This document shows positions 20,222 through 60,036 of a stretch of DNA of 64,000 nt, piece after piece. Each line of letters starts with the position of its first letter. Position 1 is the stretch's first letter. The position numbers and the translations under genes are program-made. The notes below the pieces were generated by a model that had not been told where the DNA came from, did no database searches, and saw only the letters and a program-made list of their open reading frames with translations. The stretch is from Echinicola sp. 20G (GTDB taxonomy: Bacteria; Bacteroidota; Bacteroidia; Cytophagales; Cyclobacteriaceae), in the NCBI RefSeq assembly GCF_015533855.1, contig NZ_AP024154.1, positions 4,532,501 through 4,596,500 on the forward strand, in the 5' to 3' direction.

Positions 20222-21514
20222 ATGGAAGATTTCTTGTACTTCTTTTCTTTTCAAGATCCCAATGTGCTGATGGTTGTCATTGGCATTTCACTGCTGTCCA
20301 TCAGTGCGGCCATGGTAGGTACGTTTACCTTCTTAGACAAAAAGGCACTGGTGGGTGATGCCATTTCCCATGCAGTTTTGCCCGGGGTGTGTCTGGCATT
20401 TATGTTTTCCGGAAACAAAAACCCCTTCTGGATTGTCTCTGGAGCATTTTTTACTGGTGGCCTGTGTACCTATGCCATTACTTGGATTTCCAATTACACC
20501 AAACTCAAAGAAGATACGGTGATTGCATCCGTTCTCTCTATTTTCTTTGGTGTAGGGATAGTCATGATGACCCAGCTGCAACAAACTGGCAATGCTTCCC
20601 TATCTGGCTTGGATCATTTTATTTTTGGAAACGCCATATCCATAGTCAGAAAAGACCTTTGGGTTTATGGATTTCTTGCCTTGGCAATCATTCTATCAAT
20701 CCTATTCTTCTACAAGGAATTTAAAGTAATGGTCTTTAACCGATCCTTTGCAGAAAGTGTTGGCCTGCCTGTTAAACGTCTGGAATTTCTTTTCAATTCA
20801 TTGATGGTTTTGGCCGTGGTTACAGGTATTCAGGCTATAGGTGTGGTGTTGATGGCAGCACTTCTGATTACTCCAGCGGCGGCTGCCAAATTCTGGACAG
20901 ACCGATTGGACAAGATGCTTTGGATCGCTGTTTCCTTTTCTTTGGTATCCGGAATCACGGGTGCTTACATTTCGTTTGTACTCCCCCACATGCCCACCGG
21001 CCCTTGGGTAGTCATTGTACTTTCATTGATTGCTTTTCTATCTTTTTTCTTCTCCATCAAAAAAGGAATTCTCACCAAATGGATAGCCAGAAGAAACTAC
21101 CAAAGAAAGATCCATTCAGACCACATTCTTAAGGCACTGTTTGGCGCTCGGGAAAAAGGCAAAACAGACCTTTCCATTGAATCCATTTTCAATAATTTCC
21201 CTGGTAAATCTTTTAAAACACAGTATTCAATTAATAGATTAATAGACAAAAAATATATAATTGATAATCAAGGAAATATATCATTAACAAAAAAAGGATT
21301 AACAGAAGCCAAACGTATTGTTAGACTTCATAGGTTATGGGAGCTGTACATGACAGAATATATGAATATAGCTCCTGATCATGTACATGATAGTGCCGAA
21401 AAACTGGAGCACATTATTACGCCTGAATTGGAACAAAAGCTAGACAAAAACCTCAATTTCCCGCAAGCAGATCCCCATCAATCCATCATTCCTAGAGACC
21501 AAGATAAATCATGA
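20222..21514 (+). CDS. Metal ABC permease fused to a MntR-like C-terminal domain
   Basis: 430 aa, about 130 longer than a standard ZnuB/TroC permease. Residues about 1-285 are the permease (seven to nine hydrophobic segments; GDAISHAVLPGV, LLITPAAAAKFW). Residues about 290-430 are cytoplasmic and read like a DtxR-family protein: a winged-helix-like stretch (SINRLIDKKYIIDNQGNISLTKKGL) and then RIVRLHRLWELYMTEYM, DHVHDSAEKLEHI and ADPHQSIIP, paralleling HRLWEVFLVEKL, DEVHDVAEELEHI and DPHGDPIP of the operon's own regulator. The tail may sense metal and gate transport, or bind DNA or the regulator; this is inference. It overlaps the next permease by four bases. Confidence 0.9.
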   Translation: MEDFLYFFSFQDPNVLMVVIGISLLSISAAMVGTFTFLDKKALVGDAISHAVLPGVCLAFMFSGNKNPFWIVSGAFFTGGLCTYAITWISNYTKLKEDTVIASVLSIFFGVGIVMMTQLQQTGNASLSGLDHFIFGNAISIVRKDLWVYGFLALAIILSILFFYKEFKVMVFNRSFAESVGLPVKRLEFLFNSLMVLAVVTGIQAIGVVLMAALLITPAAAAKFWTDRLDKMLWIAVSFSLVSGITGAYISFVLPHMPTGPWVVIVLSLIAFLSFFFSIKKGILTKWIARRNYQRKIHSDHILKALFGAREKGKTDLSIESIFNNFPGKSFKTQYSINRLIDKKYIIDNQGNISLTKKGLTEAKRIVRLHRLWELYMTEYMNIAPDHVHDSAEKLEHIITPELEQKLDKNLNFPQADPHQSIIPRDQDKS

Positions 21515-50602: not shown

Positions 50603-52780
50603 CTACCTATAATCCCTAACTACATTGATCACTTTTTCTTGATTTCCCTTCCTGTAACTTATTTTAAGGGCTGGTTCTATTTCTTCATCCTGGCGGATGA
50701 TCCGGGCATAATGAAACATCAAAAAACCAAGTACTTTTACCCTGTAGATATTATTATGGAATTGATTAAAACCCCTGATAATTTTTTTCACGGTTTCCGG
50801 TGCACAACTCTCTCCCCCTCTGCTTACCAATATATCAATGGCACTGTTTAGGTGGTTAATATGGTTCATACTGATTTGACTGCCATAAGCTTTGATTGTG
50901 GGATGATCCAAATGAGGGTTTTTAAGGTAGAGTAAAAAATTTTGACCATGGGTAGCTATACGTTGCTCCACTGTACTATTACCGGAAAACATACAGGCAG
51001 CCAAAGCATGGGAAAGAATCGAATAATAATTGTCCATACTTCTCCGCTTTACTTCATCAATGGCCCTAATAATTGATTTGAACGCATCGTCTGGAATCTC
51101 AATTTTTAAATCAACATGAATGTCTGTTGCACTCTTGTTCTTCAGTTCATTGGTTAATTTATCAATCAACAAATCCCTTCTATAATCTTTGATCAATCCC
51201 CAAAGCACTGCGGTATCGGCTATTTTCTTAATTTCACCCTTTTCCAATTTCTTATTTTCACTCCATTCAAAGCCCAAGTGAAGTTGGCAACTGAGGTCAC
51301 TAATCTTAGGACTAAAAACAAAACCTTTTGTTTCAGCTTGTAAACCTGCTGTCCATTTAAAAGTTTCTCCAAAAAACTCACCTTCATAAGATTTATCCGA
51401 CTTGGTAACAAGATGAAGAAAGCCTATTTGCTCATTGTATCGCTCAATGATTTCAATACTTGAATCATGGTCAATACCTATTCCTTTTTGGGCTACTTTC
51501 AGATCAAAGCCAAAACCTCGTTTGCGCTGATACCCTTTTTCCTGCAAAAACTTCTTGATGACCACTCCATCACTTTTATCTTTTAGAAGCTCCCTAAGCT
51601 TAAACTTAATCAAGTCAGCATGGTAATTTTCTAAAGCAGATTCAGAAAGTGTCCCTACCAAAAAGCAGTTTTCAGTCCTTATTTGACTATACTCATAACT
51701 TACTCCCAGTTCAATCTTAGCTTTAACAAATTGGGCGATTGTATTTCTCAGTCTTTCTAGAAAAGACTCCCAACGCTGCTTGACTTCCATAAATTTATTT
51801 GCAACAGGCCCCAAGCCAACCATTTCAGCCATTTTTTCTACGGTTTCCAATTGCTCTGCATTCAAATCCTGCATATTGGCTTTGGCCAATACCTTATTGA
51901 TTTCTGCTTTTGCCTTTTGAAGATATTGTTCGAGCAATCCATCCAAAACCTTCTCCAGTACACCTTGGTCTTTTTCTGCCAAAGAAGCTGATATGCCTAT
52001 CTGGGCACTAGCTCCTAGAGACTGCTTTTTGTTCTTTTTGACCCCAAAGTGAAACTCACTTCCTGAAACCCGCTTAATGACCAAAACAAAGTTGTCTTGA
52101 ATGCCAAAATTAAATTGGATTGTTGCACCTGCATCTACTTCCAAAGCAATTGGAGAGGCTGATTTCATGATTTTGGAAACTCCCATCAAACTTCCTGAGT
52201 ATAGGTCACTCCAACTTACCTCGAGAGATGAGTTCAGTTCTCCCGCAAACTCCAGTGTACAAACTTCATTGTTTTTCAAATTCTTCAGCTCATCGAGACT
52301 AAATATCCAAGGAAATTTTTTCAGGTCTTGCGTAGCTGCCTTAAGTAGCGAATGTTCCCTTGGATGGAGTTTGTAGGTACAGGCACGCACCTTTGCACTA
52401 CCCGAAAGAGAAAAACCCAACTGTTCCAGAGGTGCACCAGCTTTTATAGAAACCCCTATTCCATATTGGATGATAGCATGGGAATCATAATTGGGCACCA
52501 CCAGGACCTCCTCCTCTGTAGCTTTATTCTGGACTATATCGTGTTCATCCACCTCCTCATCCCGTGTATTATCTTCTGGGTCATTGAATACAAAAATCCT
52601 CGGCCCAATATTCAAACTACCTATCAGTTGAATAGACTTTCCCCCAATATTTAGGCTTTCATTAATGTCCAATACATCAAGTTTATAAGCCTCATTGGGA
52701 ATATCTGACAAGGGCTTTTGGAATGGAGGCAATGTCTCCAATTTTGCGAGATAATTCTCGAGGTTGTTGATTAACGGCAT
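50603..52780 (-). CDS. Uncharacterised 725-aa protein
   Basis: I do not recognise this protein. There is no signal peptide or membrane helix, so it is probably cytoplasmic unless exported by another route. The N-terminal third looks beta-rich with a repeated SLNIG element (SLNIGGKSIQLIGSLNIG) and an acidic stretch (PEDNTRDEEVDEHD). A middle section is a long Lys/Glu/Ala-rich helix, possibly coiled coil (about 275-350; LEQYLQKAKAEINKVLAKANM). The last 150 residues are helical with several His/Asn (HALAACMFSG, ISMNHINHLNSAIDIL). It lies 125 bp downstream of the LuxR-type regulator on the same strand and may be its target or partner. Confidence 0.6.
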   Translation of the reverse strand: MPLINNLENYLAKLETLPPFQKPLSDIPNEAYKLDVLDINESLNIGGKSIQLIGSLNIGPRIFVFNDPEDNTRDEEVDEHDIVQNKATEEEVLVVPNYDSHAIIQYGIGVSIKAGAPLEQLGFSLSGSAKVRACTYKLHPREHSLLKAATQDLKKFPWIFSLDELKNLKNNEVCTLEFAGELNSSLEVSWSDLYSGSLMGVSKIMKSASPIALEVDAGATIQFNFGIQDNFVLVIKRVSGSEFHFGVKKNKKQSLGASAQIGISASLAEKDQGVLEKVLDGLLEQYLQKAKAEINKVLAKANMQDLNAEQLETVEKMAEMVGLGPVANKFMEVKQRWESFLERLRNTIAQFVKAKIELGVSYEYSQIRTENCFLVGTLSESALENYHADLIKFKLRELLKDKSDGVVIKKFLQEKGYQRKRGFGFDLKVAQKGIGIDHDSSIEIIERYNEQIGFLHLVTKSDKSYEGEFFGETFKWTAGLQAETKGFVFSPKISDLSCQLHLGFEWSENKKLEKGEIKKIADTAVLWGLIKDYRRDLLIDKLTNELKNKSATDIHVDLKIEIPDDAFKSIIRAIDEVKRRSMDNYYSILSHALAACMFSGNSTVEQRIATHGQNFLLYLKNPHLDHPTIKAYGSQISMNHINHLNSAIDILVSRGGESCAPETVKKIIRGFNQFHNNIYRVKVLGFLMFHYARIIRQDEEIEPALKISYRKGNQEKVINVVRDYR

Positions 52781-52905
52781 TGTCTAAAATTTTGGGTTTG
52801 ATTCTTATTTCTATTCTTATCAAAATTTCTTGGATGAACATGATCCAATCACCATTTAAAGGAGCTGCCAATAATTTAATCAAAAAAGTCTATCTATACA
52901 TTGTT

Positions 52906-53700
52906 TCAAATCACCCCTTCCAACAAACACCTGCTAATCAGTTCTTCAGTGTTGGAGCACTTGGTTTTCTTTAGAATATTTCTTCTGTGCGTACAGGTAG
53001 TGTTGAAGGAGATAAATAGCCGATTGGAAATTTCCTTTGCGTTTAATCCTTTTTGAATTAAGCGTACTATTTCAATTTCGCGTTTGGTCAAAGTATTAAC
53101 CATTAAATGTTGTTCTTTAGTGCAAAAGTCCGGGTCAAAACAGCCTTGTTCAACAGGTAAATTATAATAAGACTTTTTTCCATTTAAACTGATAAAAGAC
53201 AGTCTATCAGTGGGAAGAGGCCCCAAATAAGTAATGTCTGTATGAATGATAAAGGCATGTTGAAATGAGTTATTATCGGTTATGTTAATGGGAGTTCCCT
53301 GTACCAGCATTGTTTTCCTACCTAGAACCGGATGCATAAAACAATATGCATATGTGACTTTATAATACAATTGATCCTCATTGGAAAGGTAATTGATAAA
53401 GAAATCATTTACCACCTCTTCTTTCTTCCTGACCAGATACAATTCATCCTTATCCAAAATACTGACAAGTTTTTCAATGTCAGCTTCCTCCGGTGGTATT
53501 CCCAAAATCTTCATGACATTTGGGTGAATATAATCTATCTCTAAATTATGGTAGTTAATGATATAGTAGTAAAAATCGCCAGGACTGCACATTCCAGCTA
53601 TTTGATGGAATTGAGTAATTGCTTCGAACTTTGAATATTCCTTAATACTTCCGGTATAAGCACGTTTCCATAATTCTATTACTTGGTTGTCAGGCTCCAT
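52906..53700 (-). CDS. PAS-like/LuxR-type transcriptional regulator
   Basis: 264 aa. The N-terminal 190 residues contain a PAS-like sensor segment (FYYYIINYHNLEIDYIHPNVMKILGIPPEEAD is PAS-like in layout; key text HPNVMKILGIPPEE). The C-terminal 60 residues are a GerE/LuxR helix-turn-helix (LTKREIEIVRLIQKGLNAKEISNRLFIS, then HRRNILKKTKCSNTEEL). No receiver domain is present. It may sense a cytoplasmic ligand. It is divergent from the tandem lipoprotein array and upstream of the 725-aa gene, so it could control either. Confidence 0.8.
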   Translation of the reverse strand: MEPDNQVIELWKRAYTGSIKEYSKFEAITQFHQIAGMCSPGDFYYYIINYHNLEIDYIHPNVMKILGIPPEEADIEKLVSILDKDELYLVRKKEEVVNDFFINYLSNEDQLYYKVTYAYCFMHPVLGRKTMLVQGTPINITDNNSFQHAFIIHTDITYLGPLPTDRLSFISLNGKKSYYNLPVEQGCFDPDFCTKEQHLMVNTLTKREIEIVRLIQKGLNAKEISNRLFISFNTTCTHRRNILKKTKCSNTEELISRCLLEGVI

Positions 53701-54259
53701 TATAAAAATAATTAGGTAATGACTATAGACTCACACTTACTCAAACAATTAATAAGATGTATTACAAGAAGGATACACCTATTTGCTTATAAGATGCCTT
53801 TTAACCTAATAGCATCCGCCAAAATACAATTCATTATTAAGGAAATGCATAAAAATTAAACAACAAAATATTATAGACAAACTTCATAAAACATAGTAAA
53901 AAAATCACTCTTATTCATATATTTTGATAAAAAAATTCAAACTACAATTATAAAATAAACTTAAATTATAATATGAAAAAAAATAAAAACATTTAATATT
54001 TAAATAATATTATTAAAGCTATCGTCTCAGATTTGAAGTGTAAAATCAAAATGAGGTTCTATTTGAATTATTTACTGCTATTCCAATTATTTGATCAAGC
54101 TTGAAGATTTCTTTTTCCCAATCAACAAACATCACAAAAAGCATTTAAACTCGTTTTATTATAGTTTATCTACATAATTTAATACACTAAAGGTTTTACC
54201 TAATCTTTTAGCTAACTTCCTGTAGATCAATTTTTTTAAATATTTACTTTTCAGGAGTC
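53701..54259. other. Gene-free AT-rich divergent region
   Basis: 559 bp with no supported ORF, very AT-rich between about 53860 and 54060. It should contain promoters for the LuxR-type gene and the lipoprotein array. No hairpin terminator, operator or RNA gene was found by eye. Confidence 0.5.
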
Positions 54260-55618
54260 ATGAATAAACCTAACCTTCTACTGTTACTAATCCTTTTAGT
54301 AACAAGTTGCTTACAGGAAAACCTTGAGGCGCCCAAAATGGGAATGGTCAGCTTTTCAGCCATATCATTTAGCCACTTTGGCAATCTATCTCCCAATGCC
54401 CGGATGCTTGAAGATTCCGAGTGGAAACATATCTTTAAGGAATCCGCTAACCTGACCATTACCCACAAACAAACAGGCGCCGAATATTCCCTCCAGTACA
54501 ACCCCAATGACTTTACAGAAGCTTATCAAATCCAACTGCCCTATGGGGAATACACCTTATTTTCTGAAGTAGCTGGAGGCGATTTTGAAAAGTTCTTGCC
54601 CTTCACCATCTCAGGGGAATTTATCCTGGGAGAAACTAGCTTAGATATCAGCCTGCAGGGAAGCACCGAATACGGCCTGGTTACCGTCAAAAAGGAATTT
54701 GTGCTCTCTGCCAATCTGGACGGGGAACACGAGCTGGAGATCTGCGATCAGGGATTTACACTTTATGCCTATGTCAAGGATGGACTTACCCCTACCCTGA
54801 CCATCTACGAGAACTTCAATGGACAAGCACTACAAAAGGAACTGGATATTGCGGCCTACAACCATTACCACTTCTACCTTAAGCTGACCGAAGTTCAGGG
54901 AACCGTCAACCTGATCGAGCTGGCCATTGGGCCATTTGAGTACCATGAAGAGTTTTTTGAAGTAGGGTATTTGGGATGCGGTGATAAAGATGGCTATGTC
55001 TATGATATCAATGGCAATCAATACCCTGTCGTACAAATTGGGGATCAAACATGGATGGCCAAAGATCTAAAAGCAACCTATTACAATAACGGGGATCGCA
55101 TCGCACTCAATACAGAGCAAACAAGCCTCTATACACCAGCTTTGAGGATCAATACTGATAATGGTATTATGTACAACTTTTATGCAGGTACTGACCCTCG
55201 AAAACTTTGTCCATGTGGTTATCATTTACCATCCGATGAAGAATGGAAAACAATGGAGCAATTTCTCGGAGTGGACATATCCGATGATGTTAATGATGAT
55301 ATAAACCTTTCCATCACGCGTGGTAGTGAAGAAAATGTTGGTGGCAAATTAAAGTCCATAGAAGGTTGGGAAACTCCTAATGTAGGAGCCACCAATGAGT
55401 CAGGCTTTTCAGCGCTACCCTATAAGCGAACAAATGAAAGTCAACTTACATCTGCCTACTATATGACATCTACCATTCATCATGATAATAGAGATGAATG
55501 CGAATGTGAGGAGGAAGTTGAGATTCTATGGAGATGGCTAAGTAATTACAGTTCTGGAATTGCGATAGAAATAGACCACCCCTCGACTTATGGTCAGGTA
55601 AGATGTGTCAAAGACTAA
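54260..55618 (+). CDS. Fib_succ_major-type lipoprotein, copy 1 of a tandem array
   Basis: 452 aa lipoprotein (lipobox LVTSC, Cys17). Residues about 20-235 form a beta-rich domain nearly identical in the next two genes (EAPKMGMVSFS, GAEYSLQYNPNDFTEAYQIQ, LPYGEYTLFSEVAGGDFEKF). The C-terminal part (about 245-452) resembles the Fibrobacter succinogenes major paralogous domain: VVQIGDQTWMAKDL, LCPCGYHLPSDEEWKTMEQFL, GGKLKSIEGW, GATNESGFSALP, VRCVKD. A CGDKDGYVYDINGNQY linker replaces the EITSVTDADGNEY of copies 2 and 3. Surface exposure and ligand binding are plausible, unproven. Confidence 0.75.
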   Translation: MNKPNLLLLLILLVTSCLQENLEAPKMGMVSFSAISFSHFGNLSPNARMLEDSEWKHIFKESANLTITHKQTGAEYSLQYNPNDFTEAYQIQLPYGEYTLFSEVAGGDFEKFLPFTISGEFILGETSLDISLQGSTEYGLVTVKKEFVLSANLDGEHELEICDQGFTLYAYVKDGLTPTLTIYENFNGQALQKELDIAAYNHYHFYLKLTEVQGTVNLIELAIGPFEYHEEFFEVGYLGCGDKDGYVYDINGNQYPVVQIGDQTWMAKDLKATYYNNGDRIALNTEQTSLYTPALRINTDNGIMYNFYAGTDPRKLCPCGYHLPSDEEWKTMEQFLGVDISDDVNDDINLSITRGSEENVGGKLKSIEGWETPNVGATNESGFSALPYKRTNESQLTSAYYMTSTIHHDNRDECECEEEVEILWRWLSNYSSGIAIEIDHPSTYGQVRCVKD

Positions 55619-55642
55619 AACATCAATATAACCGCTACTCCT

Positions 55643-57007
55643 ATGAAAAATTCAATCTATTACCTATCCCTTCTCTTCCTGTTGACCACCAGCTGTGTGC
55701 AGGAAAACCTTGAGGCGCCCAAAATGGGAATGGTCAGCTTCTCTAAAGTAACGTTCGAACACTTTGGAGGCCTATCTCCCAGTGCCCGGGTGCTTGAAAA
55801 ATCCGAGTGGAAACATATCTTTAAGGAATCCGCTACCCTGATCATTACCCATAAAGAAACAGGCGCAGAATATTCCCTCCAATACAACCCCAATGACTTT
55901 ACAGAAGCTTATCAAATCCAACTGCCTTATGGGGAATACACCGTATTTTCTGAAGTAGCTGGAGGCGATTTTGAAAAGTTCCTGCCCTTTACCATTACAG
56001 GGGAATTTACCCTGGCAGAAACCAGCCTGGAGATCAGCCTGCAGGGAAGCACCGAATACGGCCTGGTTACCGTCAAAAAGGAATTTGTGCTCTCTGCCAA
56101 TCTGGACGGGGAACACGAGCTGGAGATCTGCGATCAGGGCTTTACCCTTTATGCCTATGTCAAGGATGGACTGAACCCTACCCTGACCATCTACGAGAAC
56201 TTCAATGGACAAGCCCTACTAAAGGAACTGGATATTGCGGCCTACAACCATTACCACTTCTACCTCAAACTGACCGAAGTTCAGGGAACAGTCAACCTGA
56301 TCGAACTGGCCATCGGGCCATTTGAATACCATGAGGAGTTTTTTGAGATCGAGGGTGAGCAAGAGATCACCAGCGTGACCGATGCCGATGGCAACGAATA
56401 CAAGGTGGTTAAAATCGGTGAACAATATTGGATGGCTGAAGACCTCCAAACAACTAGTTCCTGTGAAGGACATTCTTTATTATTATATGATCCTGAGGAA
56501 TTTACAGGGAATTATCCACCAGATCACCTACCTGCTTATACAAAGAGAAATGATAAAATATATTATAATTTTAGAAGTACTAACTCCCCTGGTAGACAAG
56601 TCTGCCCATGCGGATGGCATGTTCCTTCTGATGAAGAGTGGACCATTTTAGAAAGATTCTTGGGACTTACTCTTGATGAAGGTGTGTATGGGTATGAAAG
56701 AGGAAGAAATGAAAATATTGGAGGTAAACTAAAAAGCATTTCAGGTTGGAGAGATCCAAATATTGGAGCAACCAATGAAGTTGGGTTCAATGCCAAACCA
56801 AGTTTCCCTGGTGTACCATCAAATGAAGATTCCTATGCACAATTTTGGAGTTCAACACAATATGGAGATTGGCTACTGGATGACAATCGTCAAGAATATA
56901 CTCCATTAGGATTTGGAAGAGAGCTCACTTATAATTCTCAAGGGATTTACAGAAGAAGAGATTTACTTGGCATTTATTTTACAAGTATCCGCTGTGTCAA
57001 AGACTAA
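55643..57007 (+). CDS. Fib_succ_major-type lipoprotein, copy 2
   Basis: 454 aa, lipobox LTTSC (Cys18). The N-terminal domain to about residue 235 is almost the same as in copies 1 and 3 (small changes such as FSKVTFEHFGGLSPSARVLEKS). The C-terminal domain begins EITSVTDADGNEYKVVKIGEQYWMAEDL and then diverges: QVCPCGWHVPSDEEWTILERFL, NIGGKLKSISGW, GATNEVGFNAKP, FWSSTQYGDWLL, SIRCVKD. FWSST is a typical motif of this domain. It is likely cotranscribed with copies 1 and 3 (24 bp spacers). Confidence 0.75.
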   Translation: MKNSIYYLSLLFLLTTSCVQENLEAPKMGMVSFSKVTFEHFGGLSPSARVLEKSEWKHIFKESATLIITHKETGAEYSLQYNPNDFTEAYQIQLPYGEYTVFSEVAGGDFEKFLPFTITGEFTLAETSLEISLQGSTEYGLVTVKKEFVLSANLDGEHELEICDQGFTLYAYVKDGLNPTLTIYENFNGQALLKELDIAAYNHYHFYLKLTEVQGTVNLIELAIGPFEYHEEFFEIEGEQEITSVTDADGNEYKVVKIGEQYWMAEDLQTTSSCEGHSLLLYDPEEFTGNYPPDHLPAYTKRNDKIYYNFRSTNSPGRQVCPCGWHVPSDEEWTILERFLGLTLDEGVYGYERGRNENIGGKLKSISGWRDPNIGATNEVGFNAKPSFPGVPSNEDSYAQFWSSTQYGDWLLDDNRQEYTPLGFGRELTYNSQGIYRRRDLLGIYFTSIRCVKD

Positions 57008-57031
57008 AACATCAATATAACCGCTACTTCT

Positions 57032-58429
57032 ATGAAATATTCAATCTATTACCTATCCCTTCTCTTTCTGCTGGCCACCAGCTGTGTGCAGGAAAACCTT
57101 GAGGCGCCCAAAATGGGCATGGTCAGCTTTTCAGCCATATCATTTACCCATTTTGGAGGCCTATCTCCCAATGCCCGCGTGCTTGAAGAATCCGAGTGGA
57201 AACATATTTTTAAGGAATCCGCTACCCTGACCATTACCCACAAACAAACGGGTGCAGAATATTCCCTTCAATACAACCCCAATGACTTTACAGAAGCTTA
57301 TCAAATCCAACTGCCCTATGGGGAATATACTCTGTTCTCTGAAGTGACCGGTGGGGATTTTGAAAAGTTCCTGCCCTTTACCATTTCAGGGGAATTTACC
57401 CTGTCAGAAACCAGTCTTGACATCAGCCTGCAGGGAAGCACCGAATACGGTCTGGTTACCGTCAAAAAAGAGTTTGTACGCTCTGCCAATCTGGACGGGG
57501 AACACGAGCTTGAGACCTGCGATCAGGGCTTTACCCTTTATGCCTACGTAAAGGCAGGACTGACCCCTACCCTGACCATCTATGAAAACTTCAATGGACA
57601 AGCCCTGCAAAAGGAACTGGACATTTCGGCTTACAACCATTACCACTTCTACCTCAAGCTGACCGAAGTTCAAGGAACCGTCAACCTGATCGAGCTGGCC
57701 ATTGGGCCATTTGAATACCATGAGGAGTTTTTTGAGATCGATGCTGAGGAAGAGATCACCAGCGTGACCGATGCTGACGGAAATGAATATAAAGTGGTCA
57801 AGATTGGTGAGCAGTATTGGATGGCCGAAGACCTGAACACAACCAAATTCTGTAATGGTGAGGATATCCTGACACTTAGGACTGAACAAATATTTGAAAA
57901 CATTACTGAACCCAATATGAGCTTTGCCGTACAAAATCGGTCAACTATGCTCTATTACAGTGAGGCCGCCATTTACGATGAAAGGAACATTTGCCCCTGC
58001 AACTGGCATGTGTCTACAGATGAAGATTGGCGTAGCTTAGAAACATATTTAGGTTTACCGGAGAATCAATTCGAGAGTGGCTTGTACACCAGAGGTGCTT
58101 CACAAAACATCGGGGGAAAACTTAAAGCAGTTGAAGAATGGCCTTTTCCAGATGACAACTTCAATTATATAAATACGGGTGCCACCAACGAATACGGTCT
58201 TACAATTTTACCATACGGTTATGTATATCCTGATGATCAATTTGATGGAGTTACTTATTATTCCACATTCGAGGATGAATATGAAGCTGCATATATATGG
58301 ACACCTCTTGAAGGCAGCAATATAGAAGATAACGCTTTATACATCCGTGAATTCCGCTACTCTATTGCTGGAATAAGACGATCTCGGTTCAATCCTACAG
58401 CAGCTTCTGTTCGCTGTGTAAAAGATTAA
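57032..58429 (+). CDS. Fib_succ_major-type lipoprotein, copy 3
   Basis: 465 aa, lipobox LATSC (Cys18). Conserved N-terminal domain as in copies 1 and 2, then the shared EITSVTDADGNEYKVVKIGEQYWMAEDL, then a third, different C-terminal sequence (NICPCNWHVSTDEDWRSLETYL, NIGGKLKAVEEW, GATNEYGLTILPYGY, ASVRCVKD). It lacks the FWSST box (reads YYSTFEDEYEAAYIW). It is the longest variant and is followed by a strong terminator. Confidence 0.75.
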   Translation: MKYSIYYLSLLFLLATSCVQENLEAPKMGMVSFSAISFTHFGGLSPNARVLEESEWKHIFKESATLTITHKQTGAEYSLQYNPNDFTEAYQIQLPYGEYTLFSEVTGGDFEKFLPFTISGEFTLSETSLDISLQGSTEYGLVTVKKEFVRSANLDGEHELETCDQGFTLYAYVKAGLTPTLTIYENFNGQALQKELDISAYNHYHFYLKLTEVQGTVNLIELAIGPFEYHEEFFEIDAEEEITSVTDADGNEYKVVKIGEQYWMAEDLNTTKFCNGEDILTLRTEQIFENITEPNMSFAVQNRSTMLYYSEAAIYDERNICPCNWHVSTDEDWRSLETYLGLPENQFESGLYTRGASQNIGGKLKAVEEWPFPDDNFNYINTGATNEYGLTILPYGYVYPDDQFDGVTYYSTFEDEYEAAYIWTPLEGSNIEDNALYIREFRYSIAGIRRSRFNPTAASVRCVKD

Positions 58430-58456
58430 CCAAAATAATTACCATTATAAGATAAA

Positions 58457-58497
58457 AAGAAGAGCCAGCGCAAATAATACGCTGGCTCTTCTCTCTT
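58457..58497. terminator. Bidirectional terminator after the lipoprotein array
   Basis: AGAAGAGCCAGCG (58458-58470) pairs with CGCTGGCTCTTCT (58480-58492) around a 9-base loop, between converging genes, with A- and T-rich flanks. Confidence 0.85.
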
Positions 58498-58514
58498 AAA
58501 TTATCCAATTCTTA

Positions 58515-59075
58515 TTATACCATTTGTCTGCTGTGGGTGCCTTCTCTGACTTCTTCCACCAATTTTCTATTGAAATCGGGAAGGTCATCAGGGGTTCTGG
58601 AAGTAACCAAACCATGATCCACCACTACAGCTTCATCAAACCATTTGGCACCTGCATTCATCAGGTCGGTTTTGATGGAATGGAAAGAAGTCAATTTTCT
58701 ACCATTGACCACATCCGCTTCCACCAAGACTTGTGGTCCATGACAAATAGCCGCTACCGGTTTGTGGTTTTTAAAGAAAGCCCTGACAAACTGAATGGCT
58801 TTCTCACTCCTCCTGAGTTGGTCGGGATTGATCACTCCACCTGGTAGCACCAAGGCATCGTAATCTTCTTCATAAACTTCTTCCAGTGTTTTGTCCACTC
58901 GCACACTATTGCTCCAGTTGCCATTCTTCCATCCTTTGATCGATCCTGTTTCTATGGAAACGACATCTACTTTAGCTCCACTGTCCTCCAAAGCCTGTTT
59001 GGGACTGGTCAATTCTGATTCTTCAAATCCATTAGTGGCTAAAATGGCTACTCTTTTATTTTGTAAGTTTTCCAT
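58515..59075 (-). CDS. DJ-1/PfpI family protein (YhbO/YfkM-like)
   Basis: 186 aa, full length for the PfpI branch. RVAILATNGFEESEL at the N-terminus carries the conserved Glu; YDALVLPGG and the nucleophile elbow AICHGPQ (Cys about 115, His next) complete the active site. Related proteins act as proteases, glyoxalases/deglycases or general stress proteins; the chemistry of this one is not certain. Monocistronic, no signal peptide. Confidence 0.88.
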   Translation of the reverse strand: MENLQNKRVAILATNGFEESELTSPKQALEDSGAKVDVVSIETGSIKGWKNGNWSNSVRVDKTLEEVYEEDYDALVLPGGVINPDQLRRSEKAIQFVRAFFKNHKPVAAICHGPQVLVEADVVNGRKLTSFHSIKTDLMNAGAKWFDEAVVVDHGLVTSRTPDDLPDFNRKLVEEVREGTHSRQMV

Positions 59076-59517
59076 GGTTGTTAAAATTTTGGTTAGCGAT
59101 TAATTTATCATTATTCGTTACCCAAAAAGGTGCAATCACTATGCCAACACCACTATATTTAATTACAAATTGATACTACAAAAACAAATTAACCATATAT
59201 ATAATTAATTTAATTATATAATATAACAATCCTCAAAAGTAACAAAAACTTCAAATCCATTACTCAAAAGGTCAGAAGCCAGAAATCTGGAGGCAAAACC
59301 ATAAAATTCTCCAATAATACAATCATCCAACACGCTTTTAACCTTTGAAGTAATTTGGCAGGTATTCAAATGATTGATTACTCACAACTTAGTCAACATG
59401 ATGTACCACGCTTTGGGGAAATAGGGAACAGTTTTACACTGGAACCTTCTTTGCCTTTTCAAACCAAAAAATGTTACCTTAAAGGTTTAAATTCCAAAGT
59501 CAAAACCTGAAGCTACA
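59076..59517. other. Gene-free AT-rich divergent region
   Basis: 442 bp between divergent genes without a supported ORF. It contains an AT-only inverted repeat around 59197-59219 (TATATAATTAA / TTAATTATATA). Promoters for both neighbours are expected here, but no clear TAnnTTTG box was assigned. Confidence 0.45.
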
Positions 59518-59961
59518 ATGAAGGAACAAAAAACTTATCCACGCTTTTTTTCAGCCTTTGTATTGATAATGATCATCTTGCTTTCATTTCAGTCTGCTGA
59601 ACCTTGGACGGCCAAACAAATGGTCTCCCCCTACGACCTGAGCCAAAGAATGCAAAAAAGTAAAGAAAAGCTCCCCTTGATCTTAAGCATAGGTCCTCAA
59701 GCGGTGATCAAAGGCTCAAAAGACATTGGGCCGGGTCAAGATCCTGACAATATCAAAAAGCTAAAAATGGTCGTCAACCAACTGCCCAAGGATACCGAAA
59801 TCATTTTGTATTGTGGTTGCTGTCCCCTACAAAAATGTCCCAACGTAAGGCCAGCTTTCAAAACTCTCAACGATCTGGGCTTTAAGAACCATAAGCTTTT
59901 GGCCATCCTGAATAATGTCAAAACGGATTGGATCAACAAAGGCTACCCAGTCCAGGATTAG
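59518..59961 (+). CDS. Exported rhodanese-like protein
   Basis: 147 aa with one N-terminal hydrophobic segment (SAFVLIMIILLSFQSAEP), likely a signal or anchor. The rest is a small rhodanese-type domain with an unusual cysteine-rich active loop, YCGCCPLQKCPNVRPAF (Cys about 101, 103, 104 and 109), followed by LGFKNHKLLAI and WINKGYPV. The classical loop is CxxGxR-like; this CGCC version may handle sulfur, metals or thiols in the periplasm. The function is unknown. Confidence 0.7.
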   Translation: MKEQKTYPRFFSAFVLIMIILLSFQSAEPWTAKQMVSPYDLSQRMQKSKEKLPLILSIGPQAVIKGSKDIGPGQDPDNIKKLKMVVNQLPKDTEIILYCGCCPLQKCPNVRPAFKTLNDLGFKNHKLLAILNNVKTDWINKGYPVQD

Positions 59962-59983
59962 AACAGTTCATCAAAAACACTCC

Positions 59984-60036
59984 AAAAAGGCTGTCCCATC
60001 AAGAATCTATATTGACGGGACAGCCTTTTGTTTTTA
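59984..60036. terminator. Bidirectional terminator after the rhodanese gene
   Basis: AAAAGGCTGTCCC (59985-59997) and GGGACAGCCTTTT (60017-60029), then GTTTTT. It separates the converging rhodanese and NPCBM-glycosidase genes. Confidence 0.8.

What the first reader, a model, noticed from the sequence alone, without database searches (positions are those of the whole stretch)
54260..58429. Tandem surface-lipoprotein array with invariant N-terminal and hypervariable C-terminal halves
Three adjacent lipoprotein genes share almost identical 5' ~650 bp and near-identical 24-bp spacers, but their C-terminal Fib_succ_major-type domains differ strongly between fixed landmarks (WMA[EK]DL ... CPC..H....DE.W ... 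GGKLK ... RCVKD). Seen: the sharp change from near-identity to divergence inside the genes. Inferred: the C-terminal half is swapped or diversified while the N-terminal half is kept uniform by gene conversion, which could generate alternative binding specificities. The divergent PAS-like/LuxR gene could regulate it.
Basis: partly seen in the sequence, partly recalled or inferred. Interest (0 to 1): 0.7.

Follow-up and report, generated by a model that had tools for sequence, protein, structure and literature searches.

The report
Lipoprotein array with swappable end domains
Three neighbouring genes in an Echinicola bacterium make lipid-anchored proteins that share one recombining base but carry different, well-conserved end domains of a kind that related species appear to swap, a likely way of changing what the cell surface binds.

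Summary
Three co-directional lipoprotein genes share a ~217-aa N-domain (90-92% nt) and 24-bp spacers (23/24 identical), then break sharply into PF09603 C-domains at 48-53% nt. The break holds on third codon positions (0 of 5000 permutations).

Ten congeneric genomes help decide. N-domains are mosaic and group by lineage; C-domains group by type across species. C-type D occurs in four species with less synonymous divergence (pS 0.26-0.41) than the one core gene tested (0.75-0.84), while five of six N-domain pairs are at 0.66-0.79. At one array position sister species E. arenosa carries a different C-domain between similar flanks. Swapping and N-domain recombination are therefore supported.

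"Hypervariable" is not: within types A, D and E the C-domain is under purifying selection (dN/dS 0.08-0.16), and no reverse transcriptase or template copy was found. In related genera the same N-domain, without a Pfam match, carries other ends, e.g. laminin-G-like or DUF285.

Surface display and ligand binding are inferred. No structure was obtained: the machine was busy at all 27 attempts.

The parts
54260..55618 (+). gene 1: lipoprotein, N-platform + FISUMP C-domain type A (452 aa); its leader (MNKP...) differs from genes 2 and 3
   Evidence: type A also in E. arenosa G007_7730, C-domain 93% aa
55643..57007 (+). gene 2: same N-platform + C-domain type B (454 aa); no close counterpart of type B found
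   Evidence: best 48% aa among the 25 other genus C-domains compared, 46% or less outside the window genome in the 390 order genomes
57032..58429 (+). gene 3: same N-platform + C-domain type E (465 aa)
   Evidence: type E also in E. arenosa G007_11987, C-domain 96% aa
54308..54958 (+). N-platform of gene 1 from the lipobox cysteine
   Evidence: no Pfam or NCBIfam match over this part, no PDB match to the profile at E <= 1
55694..56344 (+). N-platform of gene 2
57083..57733 (+). N-platform of gene 3
54959..55618 (+). C-domain type A (FISUMP) of gene 1
   Evidence: PF09603 5e-28; dN/dS 0.16 against E. arenosa
56345..57007 (+). C-domain type B (FISUMP) of gene 2; E. arenosa has a different C-type at the place that follows type A
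   Evidence: PF09603 6e-27; 31-63% nt over nt 780-1380 between 78-96% before and 90-91% after
57734..58429 (+). C-domain type E (FISUMP) of gene 3
   Evidence: PF09603 2e-35; dN/dS 0.11 against E. arenosa
56345..56446 (+). linker and first conserved block of the C-domain in gene 2 (matching 57734-57835 in gene 3): 5' edge of the exchangeable part
55619..55642 (+). 24-bp spacer 1; with the RCVKD-stop codons it forms the 3' edge of the exchangeable part
   Evidence: similar spacers in the E. arenosa array
57008..57031 (+). 24-bp spacer 2
54156..54270 (+). array leader: upstream DNA and first codons of gene 1, matching the leader of an eroded first gene in E. arenosa
   Evidence: 80.5% over a 118-column match, E 4e-19; relict N-domain in L035 from 5996
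52906..53700 (-). divergent LuxR-type regulator gene (possible regulator; untested)
   Evidence: PF00196 4e-13; 89% orthologue beside the E. arenosa array, 35-42% best match in the other nine species

Best explanation
The array is a set of co-directional lipoproteins built on one shared N-terminal platform, each ending in a different FISUMP head. Shown by sequence: platforms exchange sequence with each other (mosaic, grouped by lineage), while heads keep their own, older ancestry and are conserved within a type. Inferred: homologous recombination between the repeated stretches on both sides of each head (platform plus linker; RCVKD-stop-spacer-signal peptide) converts platforms, adds or deletes genes and replaces heads, sometimes with heads from related species. 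Inferred with less certainty: the heads are ligand-binding domains displayed at the cell envelope, so that a change of head changes what the cell binds; the genes are probably one operon.
For: Step at third codon positions. N pS 0.21-0.34 against C pS 0.71-0.85 between the three genes. N tree: window genes plus four of five E. arenosa genes one clade (100/100), type-D clade rejected, p-AU 4e-4; C tree: type-D clade of four species (99/97), window-plus-arenosa clade rejected, p-AU 1e-5. Quartet sites ortholog/within-genome/cross: C 258/1/1, N 5/10/9. Type-D heads pS 0.26-0.41 in six species pairs against MnmE 0.75-0.84. Different head between similar flanks in G007_9116 and gene 2. Two adjacent G095 genes with 89% identical platforms and ends of different families, FISUMP and Laminin_G_3. 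In genus g99 the platform diverges faster than the head, so it is not intrinsically slow.
Against: The background rate for type D rests on one core gene, MnmE. For the G006-G010 pair a flank gene (PHO4, pS 0.25) is as similar as the head (0.29), another G004-G010 flank ORF has pS 0.28, and for G004-G006 the platform is also close (pS 0.37), so some of the exchange may be whole-locus. Between the window and E. arenosa, heads (pS 0.15-0.22) are no more alike than some flank genes (0.19-0.33), so no transfer is shown there. The three window platforms as one clade is neither found nor rejected (p-AU 0.10), and clustering of N site patterns is weak (p 0.039). Groups for AU tests were chosen after seeing identities. 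Gene 2 and G007_9116 are anchored as the same place only on the upstream side; the downstream match is expected from any array gene. Surface display, binding and co-transcription were not tested; no structure.
Confidence: 0.65

Rival explanations
1. Old whole-gene duplicates whose heads simply diverged in place while platforms were homogenised by gene conversion; heads were never swapped.
For: All heads in the window are one family; heads A and E stay in the same order in both species; platform homogenisation is seen.
Against: Type D on platforms at pS 0.66-0.79 in five of six species pairs, with heads at 0.29-0.41 in those five; different head at the place after type A in sister species; unlike families on near-identical platforms in G095.
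Confidence: 0.18
2. Programmed variation: the array is a store of alternative ends used in turn by one expression site (silent cassettes or an invertible shufflon), giving phase or antigenic variation within a culture.
For: Direct repeats of 300 nt at 1386- and 1389-nt spacing around variable ends.
Against: All three genes are complete with their own signal peptides, in one direction. No inverted repeats of 20 nt or more in 53700-58520. No further copies found elsewhere in the genome.
Confidence: 0.05
3. A diversity-generating retroelement (DGR) diversifies the C-domains, as reported for some other Fib_succ_major proteins.
For: Fib_succ_major is a reported DGR target domain (PMC4159848, passages).
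Against: No PF00078 match at E 0.001 in the genome, while the same search rang in 3 of 14 control genomes. No second copy of any part of the array above 35 nt. Differences span the whole domain with indels, and types are conserved between species.
Confidence: 0.01
4. N-domains look alike only because of strong functional constraint and C-domains differ because constraint is weak; no recombination is needed.
For: N-domain dN/dS is low, 0.05-0.21 where it could be computed.
Against: The step is present at third codon positions and in pS; the C-domain is constrained too; in genus g99 the N-domain is the less conserved half in two orthologue pairs.
Confidence: 0.03
5. A conflict system resembling polymorphic toxins: a constant N-half with exchangeable effector ends.
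For: Constant N-half and exchangeable C-half; in G140 the end has a weak alpha/beta-hydrolase match below Pfam's cut-off.
Against: No room for immunity genes in the 24-bp spacers; ends in the window are FISUMP, reported as a DGR target domain, not a toxin family.
Confidence: 0.04

Closest known systems
Variable proteins of DGRs with Fib_succ_major or DUF1566 C-domains
   Same: A lipoprotein with a C-terminal Fib_succ_major domain, and HHsearch similarity of Fib_succ_major to DUF1566, are reported there (PMC4159848, passages). A C-type-lectin fold as the DGR scaffold is stated in PMC6328139 (start of abstract in a listing).
   Different: No reverse transcriptase match and no template repeat in this genome; diversity lies between old types.
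Large variable sets of PF09603 genes in Ornithobacterium hominis
   Same: Up to 17 PF09603 genes per genome and no two samples with an identical complement (PMC6421346, passage).
   Different: That passage describes no shared platform, tandem array or domain swapping.
Recombining surface-lipoprotein families: Borrelia vls, Mycoplasma vlhA (abstracts in listing; details recalled)
   Same: Lipoprotein paralogues that exchange sequence by recombination.
   Different: No silent copies or single expression site seen here; exchange is inferred between species over evolutionary time.
Polymorphic toxins of the Rhs/CDI kind (recalled)
   Same: Constant N-half, exchangeable C-half.
   Different: No immunity genes and no toxin-family ends in the window.

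Membership tests
FISUMP / Fib_succ_major domain proteins (PF09603, TIGR02145) | profile match above the curated cut-off | tested here: met
   Pfam 95.5-123.2 bits against 33.9; NCBIfam 76.3-81.9 against 41.65, all three proteins
C-type-lectin-like fold | predicted or solved structure with that fold | not tested
   Structure prediction answered busy in 27 of 27 attempts; only chance-level PDB sequence matches to the C profile
Bacterial lipoprotein | hydrophobic signal peptide ending in a lipobox cysteine | tested here: met
   Read by eye and by a script pattern; the cysteine is invariant in the 27 aligned proteins; no dedicated signal-peptide program was run
Surface-exposed lipoprotein | outer face of the outer membrane | not testable with these tools
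   needs localisation experiments
DGR target system | reverse transcriptase gene in the genome | tested here: not met
   0 matches to PF00078 at E 0.001; 3 of 14 controls rang
DGR target system | template repeat similar to the variable 3' end | tested here: not met
   apart from the array itself, 29 matches at E <= 10, none above 35 nt, best E 0.14
Invertible shufflon | inverted repeats around exchangeable ends | tested here: not met
   0 inverted repeats of 20 nt or more in 53700-58520
Gene family under gene conversion | paralogous part alike or mosaic against orthology in the rest of the gene | tested here: met
   C sites 258 orthologous of 260, N sites 5 of 24; N clades W_g1+G007_7730 and W_g3+G007_11987 rejected, p-AU 1e-42 and 0.015; a clade of the three window N-domains not rejected, 0.10

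The most novel reading that the evidence does not exclude
The N-domain is an undescribed lipoprotein display platform of Cyclobacteriaceae that serves as an exchange site for unrelated C-terminal heads (FISUMP, laminin-G-like, DUF285, DUF6929-like, perhaps a hydrolase). In Echinicola, heads move between species by homologous recombination through the platform and the shared head edges: a recombination-based counterpart of what DGRs do to the same head domain.
Probability: 0.4. Interest if true: 0.65.

Novelty: new variant of a known kind. Interest (0 to 1): 0.5.

Why it matters
Large, variable FISUMP families have been reported without a mechanism in the passages I saw. This locus separates two histories inside one gene and gives a concrete route by which a bacterium could renew what its envelope proteins bind without a retroelement. 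It also points to a platform domain without a Pfam match, which makes the question of what the heads bind testable head by head on a constant base.

Tried and rejected
DGR: no reverse transcriptase match and no template copy. Shufflon: no inverted repeats. Known structural RNA: no Rfam match at gathering threshold in 52000-60000. Promoters and terminators: 16 promoter-like sites against 13.4 (sd 3.0) in shuffles and 1 terminator-like site against 4.3 (sd 2.3), uninformative. Phage or viral source of the heads: 28% identical matches in 3 of 50,697 phage records with head B, and 4 loci at 27-48% in viral contigs with the head alignment. Source of head B: no close match in the 390 order genomes. 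PDB: the N profile gave nothing at E <= 1; gene 3 alone gave one weak match over N residues 113-216, 4hfs at E 0.09, not pursued; the C profile gave two interferon chains at E 0.29 and 0.58, taken as chance. Head transfer between the window genome and E. arenosa: not claimed, flanks are similar. Papers: Fib_succ_major in 4, FISUMP in 0. Searches (15 of 441 listed; 12 of 32 listed) showed no title or abstract start that describes this platform; only held open-access papers are searched.

Rows left out: of 34 gene pieces, 8 were dropped before the N/C tables and trees: two pieces each of broken genes in G002 and G010, the N-only G003_6696, and three genes of G030/G031 with other or short ends. 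From I quote the LacI and PHO4 flanks (identified by Pfam in G006 only; orthologues in the other three); that list also holds antisense ORFs with low pS that I take as not genes, and a G004a-G010a flank pair at pS 0.28.

The names DJ-1-like and MnmE: MnmE rests on Pfam; DJ-1-like is recalled, that protein was not scanned.
Full report
WHAT IS THERE. The window lies in a single-contig 5.79-Mb genome that I place in the genus Echinicola, family Cyclobacteriaceae, from its relatives: contig C14 of G007 and E. arenosa contig NZ_JACYTQ010000003.1 have the same length, 774,817 bases, and encode an N-domain 93% identical to gene 3's. At 54260-58429 three genes run head to tail with 24-bp spacers that differ at one base. 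Each protein has a lipoprotein-type signal, a ~217-aa N-domain and a FISUMP (PF09603) C-domain. They are the only PF09603 matches in the genome at E 0.001.

THE BREAK. N-domains are 89.9-91.7% identical in DNA (pS 0.21-0.34), C-domains 48.4-53.1% (pS 0.71-0.85). On third codon positions alone the best breakpoint falls after aligned codon 233, 233 and 247 in the three pairs, and 0 of 5000 permutations reached the observed value in each. Genes 2 and 3 stay alike up to WMAEDL, further than gene 1 does. Gene 1 differs in its first ~60 nt and upstream, as a first gene of an array would.

RELATIVES. Of 11 genus genomes, the window's own included, 8 have PF09603 genes over the cut-off and 3 (G001, G008, G009) have none. 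E. arenosa (G007) has five genes at the same locus, between the LuxR-type gene and the DJ-1-like gene. G003, G004, G006 and G010 have 2-3 adjacent genes at another locus, between a LacI-type regulator and a PHO4 gene, and three of these also have solo genes. G002 and G005 have one gene each.

SEPARATE HISTORIES. In a tree of 26 N-domains the three window genes and four of five E. arenosa genes form one clade (100/100), and a clade of the four type-D genes is rejected (p-AU 0.0004). In the C-domain tree the type-D genes form a clade (99/97), and the window-plus-arenosa clade is rejected (p-AU 1e-5). These groups were chosen after I had seen the identity table, so the p-values are indicative. 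For genes 1 and 3 and their E. arenosa counterparts, C-domain sites are 258 orthologous, 1 within-genome, 1 crossed; N-domain sites are 5, 10 and 9, weakly clustered (12 of 23 neighbours alike, 7.6 expected, p 0.039). In a DNA tree of 13 N-domains the clade of the three window genes is neither found nor rejected (p-AU 0.10). A second quartet (G004 and G006 arrays) gave N 10 orthologous, 9 within-genome, 6 crossed and C 46, 7, 6, but one of its two gene pairs has different head types.

TYPE D. Its heads differ by pS 0.26-0.41 in the six pairs of G004, G006, G007 and G010. Their N-domains differ by 0.66-0.79 in five pairs and 0.37 in G004-G006, and MnmE by 0.75-0.84 in all six. Flanks of the other locus: LacI 0.69, 0.65, 0.52 and PHO4 0.60, 0.57, 0.25 for G004-G006, G004-G010 and G006-G010, against heads at 0.26, 0.29 and 0.29. 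So G006-G010 adds nothing, while the three G007 pairs carry most weight.

ARRAY CHANGE BETWEEN SISTER SPECIES. By head, E. arenosa reads X, A, Y, D, E and the window A, B, E. Gene 2 and G007_9116, both just after the type-A gene, match at 85-96% upstream and 78-96% in 60-nt blocks up to nt 780, at 31-63% over nt 780-1380 and at 90-91% after. The upstream side anchors the position; the downstream match would be expected of any array gene. The window's leader (54156-54270) matches at 80.5% a place in E. arenosa that precedes an eroded N-domain. A simple reading, an inference, is that gene 1 joins the old first-gene leader to the type-A gene by recombination between N-domains, with loss of gene X.

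SELECTION. Between species, heads of one type have dN/dS 0.16 (A), 0.11 (E) and 0.08-0.14 (D, six pairs). Between types synonymous sites are at or near saturation, so no dN/dS should be read there. In the window, heads have lower G+C than platforms (39.1-41.1 against 46.5-47.6%; the window is 39.3%), so the platform is the odd part here; in some relatives the order is reversed.

THE PLATFORM BEYOND THE GENUS. An N-domain profile matched 51 of 390 sampled family genomes, in 13 of 84 genera. In the 18 stretches fetched plus G030 and G031, Pfam named the ends as FISUMP (G095, G158, G163), Laminin_G_3 (G095) and DUF285 (G151, G281), with sub-cutoff matches to Abhydrolase_1 (G140) and DUF6929 (G071), and none in G374; 10 of the proteins were scanned. 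G109 looks FISUMP, and several others look like G071, by eye. In G095 two neighbouring genes have platforms 89% identical in protein (pS 0.46) with FISUMP and Laminin_G_3 ends. In genus g99 arrays exist, but platforms within G158 are only 28-40% identical, and in two orthologue pairs with G109 the head is better conserved (84 against 57%, 83 against 50%). So the platform is not intrinsically slow, and its uniformity in Echinicola arrays calls for recombination or recent duplication.

MECHANISM. Most likely the repeated stretches on both sides of each head let ordinary homologous recombination convert platforms, add or delete genes and replace heads, including with DNA of related species. No reverse transcriptase match, template copy, inverted repeat or further copy was found. 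What the heads do is inferred: FISUMP domains are reported as DGR targets related to DUF1566 (PMC4159848, passages), in large variable sets (PMC6421346, passage) and in a cell-envelope proteome (PMC4619616, passage). That fits envelope-located binding. No structure could be obtained.

VERDICT. Binding specificity and LuxR control remain open.

Noticed in passing
L048:2448-3955 (G010) and L049:3611-5287 (G002): Members of the family split into two reading frames, apparently decayed genes.
   Followed up: no
L035:5996-6379 (E. arenosa): An eroded N-domain that has lost the lipobox cysteine, open in frame with the next gene, at the head of the array.
   Followed up: partly
L045:5317-7851 (G010): Two neighbouring genes with diverged platforms (62% aa) but the same head type (83% aa), at 95-100% DNA identity only over roughly nt 660-900: a likely conversion tract at the other half.
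   Followed up: partly
L127:8258-9802 (G158): A member whose N-domain is interrupted before its last stretch by a long Asp/Pro-rich insert.
   Followed up: no
window 50603-52780 (-): A 725-aa protein without a Pfam match, 93% identical in DNA in E. arenosa at the same place.
   Followed up: no
window 20222-21514 (+): An ABC-3 metal-transport permease and an iron-dependent repressor C-terminal domain in one 430-aa frame.
   Followed up: no
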